A stretch of DNA of 64,000 nucleotides from Nitrosococcus watsonii C-113 (GTDB taxonomy: Bacteria > Pseudomonadota > Gammaproteobacteria > Nitrosococcales > Nitrosococcaceae): assembly GCF_000143085.1 (NCBI RefSeq), contig NC_014315.1, positions 2,014,001 through 2,078,000 of the forward strand, given 5' to 3'. The position numbers and the translations under genes are program-made. The notes under the pieces are model-generated. The model did not search any database, was not told the DNA's origin, and worked only from the letters and a program-made list of their open reading frames with translations. How positions within the stretch are numbered: the first letter of the stretch is position 1; each line of letters starts with the position of its first letter. Below are positions 53,604 through 64,000 of the stretch, one piece after another.

Positions 53604-54788
53604 TTGGACATTACTCTTTCTAACCGCGTTCAAAAAATTAAGCCCTCTCCTACCCTTGCCATCACTGCCCGCGCCAAAGCCCTCCGGGCCGAAGGAAAAG
53701 ATATTATCGGTCTGGGAGCCGGCGAGCCCGATTTCGATACGCCAGAGCACATCAAGGAAGCGGCTATTCAAGCCATTCGAGATGGCTTTACCAAATATAC
53801 TGCCGTTGACGGCATTCCCAGCCTGAAAGAGGCCATTATCGCCAAGTTCTCCCGAGAAAATGGCTTCCAGTACGAACTTAATCAGATTCTAGTCTCTGTG
53901 GGCGGCAAGCAGAGTTTCTATAATTTAGCCCAGGCTCTGCTGAATCCAGGGGATGAAGTTATCATTCCAGCGCCCTACTGGGTCTCTTATCCCGATATGG
54001 TCCTCCTGGCAGGAGGCATACCCGTTGTTATCGCCGCGCCCCAGGAGCAAGCGTTCAAAATTACCCCCGAGCAACTAGAAGCCGCCATCACCCCTCTTAC
54101 CCGGCTACTGGTTATCAACAGCCCCTCCAATCCAACGGGTACCGCTTATAGAAACGATGAACTCGCCGCCCTAGGAGAGGTCCTCCGCCGCCACCCCCAA
54201 ATACTTATCGCTACCGACGACATGTATGAGCATATTTATTGGGGTGAAACACCTTTTTGCAATATTCTAAATGCCTGCCCCGATCTTTATGAGCGTACCC
54301 TGGTGCTCAACGGCGTTTCCAAAGCCTATTCCATGACCGGTTGGCGCATCGGTTATGCGGCGGGCGCGCCAACACTCATCAAAGCAATGAAAGCCATTCA
54401 ATCCCAGAGCACCTCAAATCCTACCTCTATTTCTCAAGTAGCCGCGCAAGCGGCAATCGCAGGAGAGCAGGCTTGCGTTAAGGCCATGTGCCAAGAATTT
54501 AAAAACCGCCATGATTTTGTCCTCGAATACCTTAACGGTATCCCTGGAGTGCAAACCTTAGCTGGAAGCGGAACTTTTTATACCTTCCCCAATTTCCAAG
54601 CAGCTATCGCCTCACGAGAAGATATTAAAGATGACGTGGAGCTCGCGGAAAATATGCTTAATGCGGCAGGTGTTGCCGTAGTACCGGGGTCAGCCTTTGG
54701 CGCACGAGGGCATCTACGCCTTTCTTTTGCTACCAGTATGGAAAATCTGGAACAGGCCCTTGAACGTATTGCCGCCTTTCTTAGTTGA
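53604..54788 (+). CDS. Class I pyridoxal-phosphate aminotransferase (aspartate type)
   Basis: 394 residues from TTG 53604 (AGGA nine bases upstream), which gives the family start DITLSNRVQKIKPSPTLAITARAKAL. A longer frame from 53493 overlaps uvrB and adds 37 unrelated residues. Motifs: GLGAGEPDFDTPEHIKEAA, VGGKQSFYNLAQALLNPGDEVIIPAPYWVSYPDMV, INSPSNPTGT, TDDMYEHI, and NGVSKAYSMTGWRIGYAAG with the Schiff-base lysine. Subgroup I-beta aspartate/prephenate aminotransferase. The IscB element begins at its stop codon. Confidence 0.93.
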   Translation: MDITLSNRVQKIKPSPTLAITARAKALRAEGKDIIGLGAGEPDFDTPEHIKEAAIQAIRDGFTKYTAVDGIPSLKEAIIAKFSRENGFQYELNQILVSVGGKQSFYNLAQALLNPGDEVIIPAPYWVSYPDMVLLAGGIPVVIAAPQEQAFKITPEQLEAAITPLTRLLVINSPSNPTGTAYRNDELAALGEVLRRHPQILIATDDMYEHIYWGETPFCNILNACPDLYERTLVLNGVSKAYSMTGWRIGYAAGAPTLIKAMKAIQSQSTSNPTSISQVAAQAAIAGEQACVKAMCQEFKNRHDFVLEYLNGIPGVQTLAGSGTFYTFPNFQAAIASREDIKDDVELAENMLNAAGVAVVPGSAFGARGHLRLSFATSMENLEQALERIAAFLS

Positions 54789-55037
54789 GTCGTCGCCTAA
54801 CTAGCTCTTCGCGTCCTTCCCTGGACTTGTCGAGCTAGTTGGTTGGCTCAACCAGCCTGAGCCCTTCGGGGCTACGTTAGCAGTTGAAGCGAAAGCGACT
54901 CACCCTGGGGTGCATCTCCCAGCCCCAGGCTCTGAGGTCAAAGGCAATGAACTTTGGTGCGACACACGAGCGAATGCCGAGACTGAACGACCCTTCAAAC
55001 ATGGGCGAGGGAACCTTAACTTTTAGGAGTCACGAAA
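54786..55037 (+). ncRNA. Putative omega-RNA of IscB
   Basis: A 250-base GC-rich, non-coding leader in front of iscB with stacked hairpins: AACTAGCTC/GAGCTAGTT (54799-54807 with 54832-54840, containing GTCC/GGAC), GGCTCA/TGAGCC (54845-54863), GCCC-TTCG-GGGC (54861-54872), and CCTGGGG/CCCCAGG (54904-54929). In IscB systems the guide RNA lies exactly here, with the guide taken from flanking DNA at its 5' end. The flank here is the last codons of the aminotransferase gene. The exact 5' end is inferred, not seen. Confidence 0.72.
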
Positions 55038-56318
55038 GTGAATAGTGTATTTGTTTTAGACGCTAATAAAACCCCGCTCATGCCGTGCCGTCCCTCTCGG
55101 GCCAGGCGGCTACTACGGGATAGGAAGGCAGCGGTCTATCGGATGCAGCCTTTTACCCTCATGTTGAAATACCGGGTTGAAGCCAGCCCACAGCCCATTG
55201 AATTTAAGGTGGACCCCGGCAGCAAAACCACGGGGCTCGCCTTGGTGGGTAAGTTCCAGGCGCAAGGCCGGGTGGTGCTGTGGGCAGGTAATCTAACGCA
55301 CCGAGGGCAGGCTATCCGCGACAGGCTAGAGAGACGACGCGCTTTACGCCGTGGAAGACGCTACCGAAATACCCGCTACCGTGCGCCCCGGTTCTTGAAC
55401 AGAACCAAGCCCAAAGGCTGGCTGCCACCTTCGCTACGCTCACGGGTTGAGAATGTCTCGACGTGGCTGAACCGTTTACTGGATAGAGCGCCCATCAGCG
55501 AATGCCATATTGAGACCGTGCGCTTTGATATACAGAAAATCCAAAACCCTGAGATTAGCGGCGTTGAATACCAACAAGGGGAATTGCTGGGATATGAAGT
55601 GCGTGAATATCTGCTGGAGAAGTGGGGTAGGAAATGCGCTTATTGCAACAAGCAAGATATCCCGCTGGAAGTGGAGCACATTACCCCGAGGTGCCGCGGC
55701 GGCAGCCATCGGGTTTCTAATTTAACCCTCGCCTGTACGCCCTGCAACCAAAGAAAGAACCACCAAACGGCGGCTGAGTTTGGTTACCCCAAGATACAAG
55801 CCAAGGCCAAGCTACCCCTGAGAGACGCCGCCGTCAATGCGACGCGTTACGCTATAGGTCGCGCTATTCAATCGCTAAGCTTACCCACCTCCTTCTGGAG
55901 CGGAGGCAGAACCAAGAAAAACCGCCTTTCCCAAGGTTACCCCAAAGACCACTGGATAGATGCCGTGTGCGTGGGTGAGAACGGCGCGAAGGTCACTATC
56001 ACCGAGGACGTTCGGGCGCTGCACATCAAAGCCATGGGGCGCGGTGCCCGGCAAGTGGTGAGGACGGATAAACACGGCTTCCCCCGTGGCAAGGCCGGGC
56101 GGTGTAAACGGGTGAAGGGTTTTCAGACGGGTGACTTAGCAAAACTCATTCAGCCCAAAGGGAAGTATGCGGGTATCCATATAGGAATGCTCGCAGGTAT
56201 CCGGGCCAGAGGAACTTTCGATATCAAGGCCAAGGCCGGTAAGATTTCGGCCAACTGGAAGAATTTCCAACTCATTCAAAGAGGAGATGGTTATGATTAC
56301 GGACTTTTGACTGTTTAA
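55038..56318 (+). CDS. iscB: IscB RNA-guided HNH/RuvC nuclease
   Basis: 426 residues, GTG start with TAGGAG upstream. In order: PLMP domain (NKTPLMPCRPSRARRLL, 10-26), RuvC-I with Asp59 (FKVDPGSKTTGLALV), arginine-rich bridge helix (91-118), RuvC-II with Glu159, HNH with zinc cysteines C200/C203/C233/C236 and EVEHITPRCRGGSHRVSN (His214, Asn228), RuvC-III with His305 and Asp308 (KDHWIDAV), then the C-terminal RNA/target-recognition part. All catalytic residues are present, so it looks active. No TnpA is nearby, so it is a solo element. IscB is the ancestor family of Cas9. Confidence 0.93.
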   Translation: MNSVFVLDANKTPLMPCRPSRARRLLRDRKAAVYRMQPFTLMLKYRVEASPQPIEFKVDPGSKTTGLALVGKFQAQGRVVLWAGNLTHRGQAIRDRLERRRALRRGRRYRNTRYRAPRFLNRTKPKGWLPPSLRSRVENVSTWLNRLLDRAPISECHIETVRFDIQKIQNPEISGVEYQQGELLGYEVREYLLEKWGRKCAYCNKQDIPLEVEHITPRCRGGSHRVSNLTLACTPCNQRKNHQTAAEFGYPKIQAKAKLPLRDAAVNATRYAIGRAIQSLSLPTSFWSGGRTKKNRLSQGYPKDHWIDAVCVGENGAKVTITEDVRALHIKAMGRGARQVVRTDKHGFPRGKAGRCKRVKGFQTGDLAKLIQPKGKYAGIHIGMLAGIRARGTFDIKAKAGKISANWKNFQLIQRGDGYDYGLLTV

Positions 56319-56511
56319 GCGCCATCACGGCGACGACAGAACTTTATGTTGACCCTCGCGCTCGGCGCGCCCTGTCTGCATGCACCGCACAGGCAGTCAC
56401 GCTCGCTGGGGGATCGTTGCACATCCCTGTGCTCTTTCAAGGATAAGCGGCGATTGGAATAAATTGATAAGTTGACGAAAGCGGCCAGGATTATTAGGAT
56501 ATAGCTATTCT
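56319..56511 (+). other. Right flank of the IscB element
   Basis: Non-coding stretch with short hairpins (for example CCTGT/ACAGG near 56371-56395). It probably contains the right end of the element, but the exact boundary cannot be placed without an empty-site comparison. It leads into tRNA-Asn. Confidence 0.4.
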
Positions 56512-57840: not shown

Positions 57841-60800
57841 TTACACACGAAGACGCTTTTTTTCGAGCCGATTAAGCACATCTGCGTATGTCACCGCGTG
57901 TCTGCCTAGCAGACGGGAGAGCGTCTTTCCATCTAAAATTTCAACCGAGTACTGTTTTGCGGCCTTTTGAGTTGCTGATCCTAAACACACGGCATTCGTA
58001 GCAAGTATCCAAGAATCGATCCGCTTACCGAGTTCCGCTTCGTATTTGACTGTGGCAGAGTGAACTTCAAGAATAGCCTTATAACCATCATAAGCACTAC
58101 CGCTCGTATGCTTGCACTGAATCAATAACCCAATTCCATCTTTCGTCAAAACAACATCAGCACCAAAATCCGCGCCACTGTGTGTCAACCAACAGTTATC
58201 CGCTTGATATTCTTTGTACAGCAATTCTGCGCACAGCGCCTCAAATTGTTGCCAACTCAAATTTCTCAACTCATCGAACGAAATGCGCTGACTTGAAGAC
58301 CTGCTCTCCTGAGGTAAACCTTCCGGTGAAGGCATTACCTGCACGGGAGTAACTACTGCGTCTTTCAACTGCCCTTTTCTCGACAGAAGTTGATGCAAAT
58401 TGACATCAAAAGACTGGTATTCAGGATGGTGAATCAAAGGAATAAACACATTTACCTTCCGCTTCTGTCCGATGCGGTAAACACGGTCGGTTGCCTGAGC
58501 CTCTTTCGCTGGGTTCCAATGGCGTTCCAGATGAATAACGTTATTGGCGCCGACCACGGTAAGTCCAACGCCCGCGGCTATCGGCGACATGATGATAACA
58601 TTAAATCCGTCCCTCTCCTCAAAAGCTCTTATCATGCTTTGTCGAGTGGGGCTTGCTGCCCTCTTTGCCACCGCTTTCGCATCACCATTTATGACTGAAA
58701 CAGGGGGCAGCAAATATATCTTTGCTAAGGTCAATGCGAGAAATGCTTGGAGCTTCTTATTGATTACAAAAATGATGCATTTTTCGCCCCGATCCCGAAT
58801 TTGATCCAAAATAGGCAGTAAACTACGAATTTTCCCGGATTCGTCTGTCAAATTTACCAAATCTGCTAATGGGCGCGGCGTGTCTAGCCCCCCGCCAAAT
58901 ACGAGTCGTGGATGCAAAGAAACATCTCTGAGCTTCTGCAACGCAGCCAATGCGGCATTGCTATCTGAACTGGAGGCACGCATAAGAATTGTGTTATAGG
59001 ATTCAAACTGACCCCCTTCCAGGGTGGAATGCAGCGCTGGGCAATACGCCCAAACATCATCCTTCATACCCACGAAAACGGACTTATCCGGCAGACCTTC
59101 CAGATTATCCTCTTTCACACGGCGCAACATCCAAGGTCCAACATGTTCTCGGAGCCGCCGGCCAACAATGCCCCTAACATGTTCAATTTCATCTCCAGCC
59201 GCACGCAGTATCGGCGTGATGTAAGCACTACGAAACGCTTGATAGCTATCCAAGAGCCCAGGACAGGCTGTATCCATTAGGCACCAAAAATCTGTAAGGC
59301 TGTTTTCAACCGGCGTTCCCGTGGCAATCAGCCTGAAATCTGCTTTGACTCCCTTTGCTGCCCGTGTTTGCAGGGCATTTGGATTTTTTATGTTCTGAGC
59401 TTCATCGAATACCGCTATCCCCCAGTCAATTGAGCAAAGAGAGAATTGATAGTCTCGCAGCATTTGGTAGGTGGTAATCACCAAGCGCTTCGGTAGGTCA
59501 AGTCGCTCCTGCGCAAAACCGCTACCGATCTTCAGCGAATACCGGATAGGAGCGGTTTCATCCTCAGTAATATTCTGGTTTTTCGTCTCGACGCCTCCTG
59601 CTCGGAACTCGGAAAGCCGCCCATCCGACTGCAGGATAACGATATCGTTGAAAGGCGACTCCTTAAAAGTTTGACCGACCTCATCTTTCCAGTTCTGCAA
59701 CAGGCTCAAGGGTGCAACGACAAGGCAGGGCTTCTCGGTAAGCTTTCGGTCTCGATACGATTTGTATAGATGCTCCATAGCTGCAAGGGACATGAATGTT
59801 TTTCCTAGTCCCATGTCATCCGCAAGAAGACCTCCACCGCGTCCGTCGCGATCTAATGCCAACCCCAAGATCCAGCGCGTACCCAATACCTGGTGAGGAA
59901 ACGGCAATCGCTTGAAAGTGCCCCAGTCGAGCGCAGACTCGGCGATGAGGACGTCATTAATCGCTCTATTAAGTGAAGCTGAAGGCGTTTCTAAATCTAC
60001 ATCGTTGAGCCCAATATCGACCACGGTGGGTTCCGCTTGCTCTTTCTTGCTGGCGCTATCGGCTTCAACAGCCGAAACATTTTCCCTTTTTTCTTCAATC
60101 AGTTTACGTTCAAGCTTCTCCAAGATGGAATTGACCAGCTTTGGGTTAGAAACATCGAAGATCCGGCCCCCAAATTCCATCTCCTGAGCGCCTGTTTCCG
60201 CGACATTCGCTAGCTTCTGCCGAACGTCGTCTAATTGATCTCCATCTGATATGACATCCACTAACTTTGCCGGCGCAAATACCTCCGTAGGAGAGAATTT
60301 TTTACCGAACCAATCGATGCCAGATTCATCGGTCTCACCAAAATACGCATGCCTGAATTTCGTCGCTCCCTTCACTCTAGCCGAAAAACCAAGGTCTAAG
60401 TCTACGAAGCTGGCATTGATAAATGCAGTTGGGTTTTTGAGAAAAGCGCTCACTTTATCCTTCGGTATCACGCGATTCCGAAGAATTTCCCGAACGGCCG
60501 CTAATTTTTCTTCATCGAAAAGAATAATTTCGCCGTCTACGCGGAGAGAAGTCGCGTGTTCTGCCCTCAATTGCCCAAGAACACGTTGAATACGTTCATG
60601 ACTCGCCGCCTGACCCATCCGTGGCGTAAGCACGAGGCGGCCGTGCTCGTCTAGCTCGGCTGCAACCGTAATTGATGCTGGCGCGCGAATATTAAGCTTT
60701 CCAAAATGGCCCAGAGAGATCGAAGCGCCTAGCTCTTGAGCCTTTTGCAACGAGAGAACGAGACGTAAGTCGTCATACTCCATCTTCGCGGAATGTGCAT

Positions 60801-61278
60801 GCTTCTCATATGCCTCAAATATGAGCAAATGAGCAGGAGACAGCACATAACGTTTTTCCGCCGAAAAGCGAATGACTGGCCCCTCTACTGCAAAGCCATG
60901 CGTAAATCCGCCCCCCGCATCCGCAGCGGCCAGCTCTACCTGAAAAGATGCGCTGCCCGTCTTACCCTTGATGTTTGCATTGAGGACGCCCTTCCATCGG
61001 TCGGGCAGCCCCAACAGTAGGCGGGTATTTTCATCTAGTTGTACCACAACGTCCGAAGGGACGAGCACACCGTTAGGCAACTCTTCTGCCCGCCCCTGTT
61101 CGACTAGCATGCTTAGGGCAATATATTGATGTATCAGCAGATCGCTTGCGCCACCACCATGAATTTGCGCTTCTTGTTTTTCAGTGAAGATAAAATTAAT
61201 GCCCTCGGAATCGTAATTCCAAGCGCAACCCGTCGCCTTGGCGCCAACAAGGCCCGTGATCCATTCCTTCAGGGACAT
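57841..61278 (-). CDS. zorD: Zorya effector ZorD: SNF2 ATPase with Mrr-like nuclease
   Basis: 1145 residues. Positions 1-440 have no catalytic motif and correspond to the regulatory N-terminus of ZorD. SNF2 core: LLADDMGLGKTFMSLAA (Walker A, 485-500), VFDEAQNIKNP (DEAQ box, 623-633), TGTPVENSLTDFW (653-665), and GVGLTVVGANNVIHLERHWNPAKEAQATDRVYRIGQ (903-938). The C-terminal Mrr-like endonuclease domain has Glu1013 (QFEALCAELL), Asp1041 in GADFGADVVL and QCK at 1054-1056, complete for catalysis. In Zorya it is recruited to degrade invading phage DNA. It starts two bases after zorC. Confidence 0.9.
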   Translation of the reverse strand: MSLKEWITGLVGAKATGCAWNYDSEGINFIFTEKQEAQIHGGGASDLLIHQYIALSMLVEQGRAEELPNGVLVPSDVVVQLDENTRLLLGLPDRWKGVLNANIKGKTGSASFQVELAAADAGGGFTHGFAVEGPVIRFSAEKRYVLSPAHLLIFEAYEKHAHSAKMEYDDLRLVLSLQKAQELGASISLGHFGKLNIRAPASITVAAELDEHGRLVLTPRMGQAASHERIQRVLGQLRAEHATSLRVDGEIILFDEEKLAAVREILRNRVIPKDKVSAFLKNPTAFINASFVDLDLGFSARVKGATKFRHAYFGETDESGIDWFGKKFSPTEVFAPAKLVDVISDGDQLDDVRQKLANVAETGAQEMEFGGRIFDVSNPKLVNSILEKLERKLIEEKRENVSAVEADSASKKEQAEPTVVDIGLNDVDLETPSASLNRAINDVLIAESALDWGTFKRLPFPHQVLGTRWILGLALDRDGRGGGLLADDMGLGKTFMSLAAMEHLYKSYRDRKLTEKPCLVVAPLSLLQNWKDEVGQTFKESPFNDIVILQSDGRLSEFRAGGVETKNQNITEDETAPIRYSLKIGSGFAQERLDLPKRLVITTYQMLRDYQFSLCSIDWGIAVFDEAQNIKNPNALQTRAAKGVKADFRLIATGTPVENSLTDFWCLMDTACPGLLDSYQAFRSAYITPILRAAGDEIEHVRGIVGRRLREHVGPWMLRRVKEDNLEGLPDKSVFVGMKDDVWAYCPALHSTLEGGQFESYNTILMRASSSDSNAALAALQKLRDVSLHPRLVFGGGLDTPRPLADLVNLTDESGKIRSLLPILDQIRDRGEKCIIFVINKKLQAFLALTLAKIYLLPPVSVINGDAKAVAKRAASPTRQSMIRAFEERDGFNVIIMSPIAAGVGLTVVGANNVIHLERHWNPAKEAQATDRVYRIGQKRKVNVFIPLIHHPEYQSFDVNLHQLLSRKGQLKDAVVTPVQVMPSPEGLPQESRSSSQRISFDELRNLSWQQFEALCAELLYKEYQADNCWLTHSGADFGADVVLTKDGIGLLIQCKHTSGSAYDGYKAILEVHSATVKYEAELGKRIDSWILATNAVCLGSATQKAAKQYSVEILDGKTLSRLLGRHAVTYADVLNRLEKKRLRV

Positions 61279-61280
61279 CT

Positions 61281-62714
61281 CTACGCTCCATACAACCGCT
61301 TGTATTGGCGATAATCTTCTGGCGTAAGAACGTCTTTCGCCTCAATCGGAACCTCCATCTCTTTCAGAGCAACAATCGCCTTATGTTGCCAACCAGTGCA
61401 ATGAGAAATATTGGCCTTGGGGGGCAAACCCTTTTTCCGCATTATGAGACTAAGTCCTTGGGTCAAGGAATGGTAGGTAACTCGGTTTTTAGAGTAATCG
61501 AACACGATGGCGGAGGAATCGAGAGTCTCATAGATCCATAGCTGACAATTGTGGCTGCCTTCAATCAAATGAATGCCCCCTAATTGAATATGGATTAAAG
61601 ACCTACCTCCATGATCCGTAACAACGGAATAATGGGGTAGATGCTCTGCCCTATACGCCTTTTTCAAATACGATTCGGCGCTTGGCGACAAATACAAACG
61701 CGTACCCGTTACCAGTTGTTCATTCAACAAGCCCTCTATGAAGCGCTTACGCGCGGGATACATTCGCTTTAGGTCTTCCTTGCCTGGCTGACATGAGAAA
61801 TCTTCCAAGCTCTCCAGGAAAAGTCGAAGATCCAGTTTCGAGAGCCAACCTTGTACCTTATTTTTCAGTTGAGGATCGAGTTGAGACCACCACTTCTGGT
61901 GATTGGGGTGGCAAGTAGGCACCCTCGGATCTCCCCCAATCGCCAGGACTGCATTCAACCAAGCCTCCCCCACAGCATTGACAGGAGCCTTCTCAATCAA
62001 TATGCCAAGTATTTGATGACCCAAAAGATGCCGCTCGTCGTACCGGGAGTTATAAACTGGCCGCTTTTGCATCTCATCCAGCAACGGGTGATCCTGATTG
62101 GGCTCAAGCTTGCGCAGTACGTCCAGATAATAAATATTCTTCGCAACCGTCATAAATCGACCCGAGCGAAAACGATCAAGCCCAACGCGCCCCACCTGCT
62201 CATCAAAGTCCACGCCTTGCCGGCGGGCATCTTCCGCCAACCACTTTGGGCCATTACCACCTAGAATCGCTGAAACCTCTTCGCTCAGTCTTCCCCTTCT
62301 TCCCTTAGCAACACGCAACCAGCTTTCTACAGCTACCCTGTCTGGAAGGGCGTCGTAATCAGTCAAATAGTGAGCATAAATGGCATCGACCAATAAAGCC
62401 GTAGGCTTTTGACGGATTTGGTTGATTTTTTGTAGCACGGGCTCTGTTAACCTGATTTTGGACACCCACCCTGTATTAAAAGACACTGCAAAAGCCCGCA
62501 AATCAGTCGGCGTCCGCAAAACCTCGTTCAAGTCTCGATCTTCGCTTAACGCTTTCAGCACACGTTCATACGCTTGCTTAAACGCAGCGCTTCCTGTTCC
62601 CGACCCACGTGCTAGCTGCTTAATCTCCTGCGCCGCGGCGTCGATACGCTCCTTGTATGACAAAAGAGACTCGTCAGATAAACTGAAATGGAGCTTGTTA
62701 AGAGGTAATCTCAT
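61281..62714 (-). CDS. zorC: Zorya protein ZorC (EH-signature domain)
   Basis: 477 residues, largely helical. The C-terminal EH-signature region matches ZorC: QLVTGTRLYLSPSAESYLKKAY, HYSVVTDHGGRSLIHIQLGGIHLIEGSHNCQLWIYE, and NRVTYHSLTQGLS. There are no enzyme motifs. ZorC is thought to bind DNA and link the membrane motor to ZorD. Identity rests chiefly on order between an OmpA/MotB-like gene and an SNF2-Mrr gene. The start overlaps zorB by four bases (ATGA). Confidence 0.86.
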   Translation of the reverse strand: MRLPLNKLHFSLSDESLLSYKERIDAAAQEIKQLARGSGTGSAAFKQAYERVLKALSEDRDLNEVLRTPTDLRAFAVSFNTGWVSKIRLTEPVLQKINQIRQKPTALLVDAIYAHYLTDYDALPDRVAVESWLRVAKGRRGRLSEEVSAILGGNGPKWLAEDARRQGVDFDEQVGRVGLDRFRSGRFMTVAKNIYYLDVLRKLEPNQDHPLLDEMQKRPVYNSRYDERHLLGHQILGILIEKAPVNAVGEAWLNAVLAIGGDPRVPTCHPNHQKWWSQLDPQLKNKVQGWLSKLDLRLFLESLEDFSCQPGKEDLKRMYPARKRFIEGLLNEQLVTGTRLYLSPSAESYLKKAYRAEHLPHYSVVTDHGGRSLIHIQLGGIHLIEGSHNCQLWIYETLDSSAIVFDYSKNRVTYHSLTQGLSLIMRKKGLPPKANISHCTGWQHKAIVALKEMEVPIEAKDVLTPEDYRQYKRLYGA

Positions 62715-63463
62715 TGCTCGACGATATCCTCCAGTTCAGAAATACGGGGCCGCTTAACGGTAAAGCGAATATCGATCCTTCGATTCTCTCTCCTGTCCTC
62801 ACGGGTTATTTCTGCCTCATTCACTCTTCTGGTAGCGGCATAGCCACTCACCGAAAATAGCTTATCGCCAAAAGCATTTGACATATCCGTGAGCACTGGA
62901 GAAACATCGAGCACATCGTCCCAGTACTCCCAGAGCGAAATAGCCCTGAACGTCGAAAGTCCCCAGTTCCCTTTAATACGCTTCGTAGGTCTACTATCAG
63001 TATGGCCTTCAATAAACACCGTATCTAGGTAGTCAAACCGCCTCTTTTCAGAGACACCAGGCTTGAAAGATCGGTTAATCGCCGCATGCAAGACTTGGCC
63101 GATAGCTACCACGGATGAACGTACCTTTTCGTCAGCAGGCAACGCATAGCTATTAGAAGCAAACGCCAATGTACTCTCTGGAATGCGCAACACGGTGTCG
63201 TTGTCAGCAATTAAGATTTTGATATTTCGCTTCGCCAACTCATCTCGTATTTCGTGGAGGATATCCCTCCTTGCCTGCTCCGCATTCTTGAGCTGGTCAA
63301 TGTCTTGTTCAATTTTTTTCTGTGTTTGAGTTAACTCAATGATCAGCGCCACCGCAGCTAGAATGAAGATCACCAGCAACGCCGACATTAAATCCGAGAA
63401 AGAAATCCAGTAAGGATTCTCCTCGTCCACTCTTCTTGGTTTTGGTCGAATAAGCGCATGCAT
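62711..63463 (-). CDS. zorB: Zorya motor subunit ZorB (MotB/OmpA-like)
   Basis: 250 residues. A short cytoplasmic N-terminus, one membrane helix PYWISFSDLMSALLVIFILAAV with the proton-carrying Asp24 typical of MotB-like stators, a coiled-coil linker (40-80), then an OmpA/peptidoglycan-binding domain: LDTVFIEGHTDSRPTKRIKGNWGLSTFRAISLWEYW and VSGYAATRRV...REDRRENRRIDIRF. It pairs with ZorA to make a proton-driven motor anchored to the cell wall. Start overlaps the zorA stop (TAATG). Confidence 0.92.
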   Translation of the reverse strand: MHALIRPKPRRVDEENPYWISFSDLMSALLVIFILAAVALIIELTQTQKKIEQDIDQLKNAEQARRDILHEIRDELAKRNIKILIADNDTVLRIPESTLAFASNSYALPADEKVRSSVVAIGQVLHAAINRSFKPGVSEKRRFDYLDTVFIEGHTDSRPTKRIKGNWGLSTFRAISLWEYWDDVLDVSPVLTDMSNAFGDKLFSVSGYAATRRVNEAEITREDRRENRRIDIRFTVKRPRISELEDIVEQ

Positions 63464-64000
63464 TAGTGACTCAACTTATCTTCGATTTCATCAACTACGG
63501 ACGACAATGCTCTCGCCGCGCCATTCATCTGTTCTGCATAATTAGTCGTATGCCCCGCCCATATATTCAGATGTTCTTTTGTTTGCGCATTAGCTTGCCC
63601 GGCGTAATCGCTCAACAGTTTAGCGCCCTGTTCCGACAATTCCTGCACATTCCGTTTCAGTGAATCCAAATAGCTCTTCTGGTGCACTTCCATATACTTA
63701 AATGTCGAATCAGCCGCCTGGACAACAGATTCCAGTTGCGCGGCCACCGCTTGTAATTTTTCAATACTGTGCGACATCTCCTGATGTACCTGGCCGACGG
63801 TAACTGAAGACTTCTTGTTCTCGTCCGCCAGTTTCGCTGTTGACCTAGCCGCCTCGTTGAGCGCGCCACTAAGTTGTATAGACGACTGTTTAACCCCTTC
63901 ACCGTAATCCTTGAGCTGACTCGCCGCCGAGCGCAATTCGGCTGCCCCCGCGTTAATACCGTGGGCCACCCTCTCGAAGTTCGACTGACTAGCTGCCACC
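63463..64000 (-). CDS. zorA: Zorya motor subunit ZorA, C-terminal part
   Basis: The last 179 codons of ZorA; the MotA-like membrane part lies to the right of the window. The visible piece is a continuous alpha-helical coiled coil with regular small-residue heptads (LRSAASQLKDYGEGVKQSS, VAAQLESVVQAADS, NVQELSEQGAKLLSDYAGQ), matching the long cytoplasmic tail of ZorA that relays the infection signal. No other domain is visible. Confidence 0.83.
   Translation of the reverse strand, partial: VAASQSNFERVAHGINAGAAELRSAASQLKDYGEGVKQSSIQLSGALNEAARSTAKLADENKKSSVTVGQVHQEMSHSIEKLQAVAAQLESVVQAADSTFKYMEVHQKSYLDSLKRNVQELSEQGAKLLSDYAGQANAQTKEHLNIWAGHTTNYAEQMNGAARALSSVVDEIEDKLSH

What the first reader, a model, noticed from the sequence alone, without database searches (positions are those of the whole stretch)
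54775..56320. Intact solo IscB with structured omega-RNA leader
All RuvC and HNH catalytic residues are present and the 250-base leader forms at least four strong hairpins. The element begins exactly at the aminotransferase stop codon, so the natural guide would be copied from the 3' end of that housekeeping gene (about 54770-54790) and would target element-free copies of this locus.
Basis: partly seen in the sequence, partly recalled or inferred. Interest (0 to 1): 0.8.

Follow-up and report, generated by a model that had tools for sequence, protein, structure and literature searches.

The report
IscB jumping gene with mapped ends
This is a complete small mobile element carrying an IscB enzyme (a relative of the ancestor of CRISPR-Cas9) and its guide RNA, inserted at the tail of a bacterial aminotransferase gene; the kind is known, but here both ends, the likely natural guide and the likely target motif can be read off by comparison with uninserted relatives.

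Summary
55038-56318 encodes an intact IscB (NCBIfam guided_IscB, E 2.8e-130) with the RuvC and HNH catalytic residues. The leader is an omega-RNA of the HEARO type (Rfam RF02033, 63 bits, E 6.6e-12, below the curated cut-off of 83), with covarying helices. Its first base is also the first base of the covarying terminal stem of the omega-RNA, so the guide would be 54768-54783 (ATTGCCGCCTTTCTTA), inside the aminotransferase gene. The element supplies that gene's new stop codon. The likely target-adjacent motif is the right flank, AAGG. All nine mapped IscB insertions in the genus have G at flank position 4, and eight have G at position 3. The right end is homologous to the upstream end of tnpB-only elements and short non-autonomous elements in the same genomes, so iscB lies in the opposite orientation to tnpB, and both probably use one shared transposase in trans. 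No transposase with such ends was found. New member of a known kind (OMEGA/IscB, IS200/IS605-like). RNA production and cleavage are inferred, not shown.

The parts
54784..56438 (+). Whole mobile element (1655 bp): omega-RNA, iscB and right-end hairpin
   Evidence: Empty site in L004 (91% flank identity), L005, L006; same ends in congeneric copies; precise empty sites for other copies
54768..54783 (+). Predicted natural guide, ATTGCCGCCTTTCTTA (last 16 bases of the left flank, 3' end of the aminotransferase gene)
   Evidence: Inference from the element boundary plus the known 16-17 nt 5' guide of IscB (PMC9640706)
54784..55020 (+). Omega-RNA scaffold (HEARO type)
   Evidence: Rfam RF02033 hit 54829-55020; alignment and covariation
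54784..54789 (+). 5' arm of the omega-RNA terminal stem (GTTGAG), also the element's left terminus; pairs with 54847-54852
   Evidence: Covarying helix, 4 of 6 pairs changed on both sides, 97% of cells paired
54847..54852 (+). 3' arm of the omega-RNA terminal stem (CTCAAC)
55038..56318 (+). iscB, 426 aa, PLMP, RuvC, bridge helix, HNH, RuvC and C-terminal WED/TI-like region
   Evidence: dN/dS 0.04-0.08 against congeneric copies
56365..56438 (+). Right end, homologous to the upstream end of tnpB-only elements and short non-autonomous elements; holds terminal hairpin GCACA-TCCC-TGTGC (56419-56432)
56439..56442 (+). Predicted target-adjacent motif and transposase target (AAGG)
   Evidence: Flank motif over 9 IscB and about 34 related insertions
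53604..54788 (+). Class I/II aminotransferase (aspartate-transaminase-like) whose last codons are replaced by the insertion; start codon uncertain
   Evidence: uninterrupted C-terminus in L004-L006

Best explanation
A non-autonomous IS200/IS605-like insertion element encoding an IscB-omegaRNA RNA-guided nuclease. The left terminus is the first base of the omega-RNA scaffold, so whatever lies upstream of the insertion, here the last codons of an aminotransferase gene, becomes the guide. The RNA is probably a read-through product of the aminotransferase transcript, since no promoter-like match was found at the left end. IscB loaded with this RNA is expected to cut ATTGCCGCCTTTCTTA followed by a motif of the NNGG kind, which at this locus exists only when the element is absent. 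The occupied locus is expected to be spared because the element begins GTTG where the motif would be. Cutting an empty sister copy would prompt repair from the occupied one and restore the element after single-strand excision. Excision and insertion are inferred to be done in trans by a Y1 (TnpA) transposase that also moves the tnpB-only and short elements sharing the right end; iscB is flipped relative to tnpB, so that in both the guide comes from one transposase end and the motif from the other. Shown: protein, RNA fold, exact ends, shared end, flank motif. Inferred: RNA production, cleavage, repair, transposase.
For: IscB and HEARO assignments; empty sites in three congeners and for other copies; common ends in the congeneric copies; covarying terminal stem at the element's first base; low dN/dS; right end shared with tnpB-only elements in opposite orientation and with short elements; terminal hairpin with compensatory changes, 0 of 2000 shuffles as good; flank G at position 4 in 9/9 IscB insertions and nearly all others; no second guide-plus-NNGG site with 0-1 mismatch in its own genome; mechanism precedents for TnpB and IscB (PMC8612924, PMC9640706, PMC11870625).
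Against: No RNA data; no transposase with matching ends found in four genomes, so current mobility is unproven. Only one copy in its own genome. The left termini of IscB (CTCAAC) and tnpB-only (CTCCAA) elements, read in transposase orientation, are similar but not identical. The motif rests on nine IscB insertions.
Confidence: 0.85

Rival explanations
1. A domesticated or immobile IscB: the element is fixed and the RNA-guided nuclease now serves another role (gene regulation or defence).
For: Single copy in this genome; no transposase with matching ends; a Zorya-like defence locus lies next to it.
Against: Copies at eight different sites in one congener, several 99.5-99.9% identical to each other, show recent movement of the same family; catalytic residues and element ends are kept.
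Confidence: 0.08
2. A decaying remnant: the protein is still open but the RNP is inactive (weak Rfam score, part of a long RNA stem degraded).
For: HEARO score 63 is under the curated 83; read by eye, the stem GTTAGCAG/CTTCAAAC has two mismatches where the congeneric copies L102 and L105 pair fully (sequences).
Against: dN/dS 0.04-0.08; open 426-aa frame; L099, L100, L102 and L105 also miss the Rfam cut-off, so the low score is a property of this RNA clade.
Confidence: 0.07

Closest known systems
IscB / OMEGA systems of IS200/IS605-like elements (OgeuIscB, TbaIscB; PDB 7xht, 9k30)
   Same: Domain order, catalytic residues, HEARO-type RNA directly 5' of iscB, guide at the 5' end of the RNA, purine-rich motif downstream (OgeuIscB NNRR, PMC9640706)
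   Different: About 16-21% identical in the fold alignments; inferred flank motif NNGG; first RNA stem GTTGAG...CTCAAC rather than GTCAAC...GTTGAC
HEARO RNA and ORF (Rfam RF02033)
   Same: RNA architecture, terminal stem, position upstream of an HNH protein
   Different: Scores below the Rfam cut-off; extended stem-loop inside the first stem
TnpB/reRNA elements such as ISDra2
   Same: Transposon-end RNA with a flank-derived guide; motif at the other flank; right end of this element homologous to the upstream end of tnpB-only elements in the same genus
   Different: Nuclease is IscB, the guide is at the RNA 5' end and the gene lies in the opposite orientation

Membership tests
IscB (OMEGA nuclease) | PLMP domain, split RuvC with bridge helix, inserted HNH | tested here: met
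IscB (OMEGA nuclease) | Catalytic RuvC D/E/H/D and HNH His | tested here: met
   D59, E159, H305, D308, H214
IscB (OMEGA nuclease) | Structured omega-RNA immediately upstream | tested here: met
IscB (OMEGA nuclease) | RNA-guided cleavage with target-adjacent motif | not testable with these tools
   only the flank motif was inferred
HEARO RNA RF02033 | Rfam gathering score of 83 bits | tested here: not met
   63.1 bits, E 6.6e-12; likeness argued from alignment and covariation with RNAs that do pass
IS200/IS605-like element | Precise insertion without target duplication | tested here: met
IS200/IS605-like element | Subterminal hairpins at both ends, conserved target motif next to one end only | tested here: met
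IS200/IS605-like element | Mobilised by a Y1 TnpA | tested here: inconclusive
   intact tnpA genes exist in the genome, none in an element with these ends

The most novel reading that the evidence does not exclude
IscB-carrying elements and tnpB-only or short elements of one genus share a transposase end, yet IscB insertions sit next to NNGG while the others sit next to RANG (position-3 G in 8/9 against 9/34, Fisher p 0.001). If one transposase moves both, the difference would be a footprint of RNA-guided cutting: only insertions whose flank the nuclease can recognise are retained. A second, undetected transposase with its own target preference would explain it equally well.
Probability: 0.3. 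Interest if true: 0.6.

Novelty: new member of a known kind. Interest (0 to 1): 0.38.

Why it matters
It gives a natural IscB locus with base-exact ends, a defined natural guide, a candidate motif and several empty sites, in a genus where IscB, tnpB-only and short elements share an end. That makes two questions testable: which transposase moves solo IscB elements, and whether nuclease specificity shapes where such elements survive.

Tried and rejected
Target motif inside the element (CTTC at the right terminus as part of the target): rejected because empty sites lack it. Mobilisation by the two intact tnpA-tnpB elements of this genome: their ends differ. Copy L209 was first counted as a mini IscB element, but it is an IscB left end next to a tnpB-type short element, so its flank was moved to the other set (statistics redone). 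A first RNA alignment with wrong coordinates for three loci was discarded and redone. The key IscB and transposon-retention papers (Altae-Tran 2021, Meers 2023) are not in the library, so whether the flipped shared end is already described there could not be checked; no held paper joins IscB and Nitrosococcus.

Full report
What is there. The ORF 55038-56318 is a complete IscB: NCBIfam guided_IscB E 2.8e-130, RRXRR and HNH domains, best solved relatives TbaIscB, HfmIscB and OgeuIscB, and the predicted model's best structural matches are IscB and IsrB complexes. The PLMP motif starts at residue 13. D59, E159, H214, H305 and D308 correspond to the catalytic residues named for OgeuIscB and are invariant or nearly so in 36 relatives. 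dN/dS against the four congeneric copies tested is 0.04-0.08, with dS near saturation.

The leader. Rfam HEARO matches 54829-55020 at 63.1 bits, E 6.6e-12, below the curated 83. Thirteen related loci pass the cut-off, but the copies from the same genus (L099, L100, L102, L105) do not. In a 15-sequence alignment the RNA starts at 54784. Three helices keep 94% of cells paired, with 14 of 18 pairs changed on both sides somewhere, against 22-45% when slid. Single-sequence folding gives z -2.64.

The ends. In the nearest congener the flanks match on either side of one point, with the element's 1655 bp absent; two further congeners have the site empty at the same point. This gives 54784-56438. Removing the element restores CTT AAA GGA TAA, matching the reading frame and stop position of the congeners (CTT AAG AGA TAA; CTT AAC CCC TAA). 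With the element, the gene ends CTT AGT TGA, so the element provides the stop codon. Seven copies in one congener and one in another start GTTGAGTCGTCGC and end CTTC or TTCC. Joined flanks of several copies and of related short elements match contiguous sequence in other congeners; the junctions of L099, L104 and L117 are the cleanest, others are diverged or interrupted.

The guide and the motif. IscB uses a 16-17 nt guide at the 5' end of its RNA (PMC9640706). With the RNA scaffold starting at the element's first base, the guide is 54768-54783. The motif must then be the right flank: AAGG here. Over nine IscB insertions, flank position 4 is G in 9 and position 3 is G in 8; over about 34 tnpB-only and short elements the motif is RANG (corrected). 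OgeuIscB reads NNRR. The occupied junction reads GTTG and so should be spared. In its own genome the 13-nt seed with NNGG occurs nowhere else with fewer than two mismatches. The congeners' empty sites have 1, 2 and 3 guide mismatches and flanks ACCC, AGAG and ACCC, so they are predicted not to be cut.

The shared end. The last 120 bp match many places in four genomes of the genus, including one without a full IscB. Several of these are the upstream ends of tnpB-only elements transcribed away from that end; others bound short elements without genes. In iscB elements the same end lies downstream of the gene, so the orientation is reversed. This fits a guide at the RNA 3' end for TnpB and at the 5' end for IscB: in both, the guide is taken from the same transposase end and the motif from the other. 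The terminal hairpin keeps pairing through compensatory changes. No intact tnpA lies in an element with these ends, so the mobiliser is unknown.

Function. The most likely role, by analogy with TnpB (PMC8612924, PMC11870625), is retention of the element: cutting the element-free sister and being copied back by repair. No promoter-like match was found at the left end, so the RNA is probably transcribed from the aminotransferase side. These steps are inference.

Identity of the genome. 3,373,286 bases in three contigs with a 3,328,570-base chromosome fits Nitrosococcus watsonii from memory; the collection gives no name, so genus and species here are inference.

Noticed in passing
57841-63999, minus strand: Beyond the tRNA-Asn next to the IscB element lies a locus whose 1145-aa protein matches ZorD (PADLOC PDLC00627, 1401 bits), with a 477-aa ORF and a 250-aa OmpA-like ORF beside it and a further ORF running off the window: probably a type I Zorya defence system. 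Only ZorD was tested.
   Followed up: partly
L115, L118 (G000), L112 (G003), L110, L113, L117 and L189-L216: A genus-wide family of tnpB-only and short non-autonomous elements with a common covarying terminal hairpin and flank motif RANG; 44 right-end matches in one congener that lacks a full IscB.
   Followed up: partly
L097 1501-2110 (G000:C1:1787029 region): A fragment of a Y1 transposase C-terminus beside one of the short elements; possibly a relic of the missing mobiliser.
   Followed up: no
L217, L218, L219 (G001): Omega-RNA ends followed by truncated iscB, so RNAs with other guides could act with an IscB made elsewhere in the same genome.
   Followed up: no
L209 (G001:C2:3794165-3794590): An IscB left end 96% identical to this window's joined to a tnpB-type short element: a chimera of the two element classes.
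   Followed up: partly
L057-L070, L083, L085 (Marinobacter): Multi-copy IscB elements with ends GTCAAC...ATGA, where ATGA may be the flank motif rather than element sequence.
   Followed up: no
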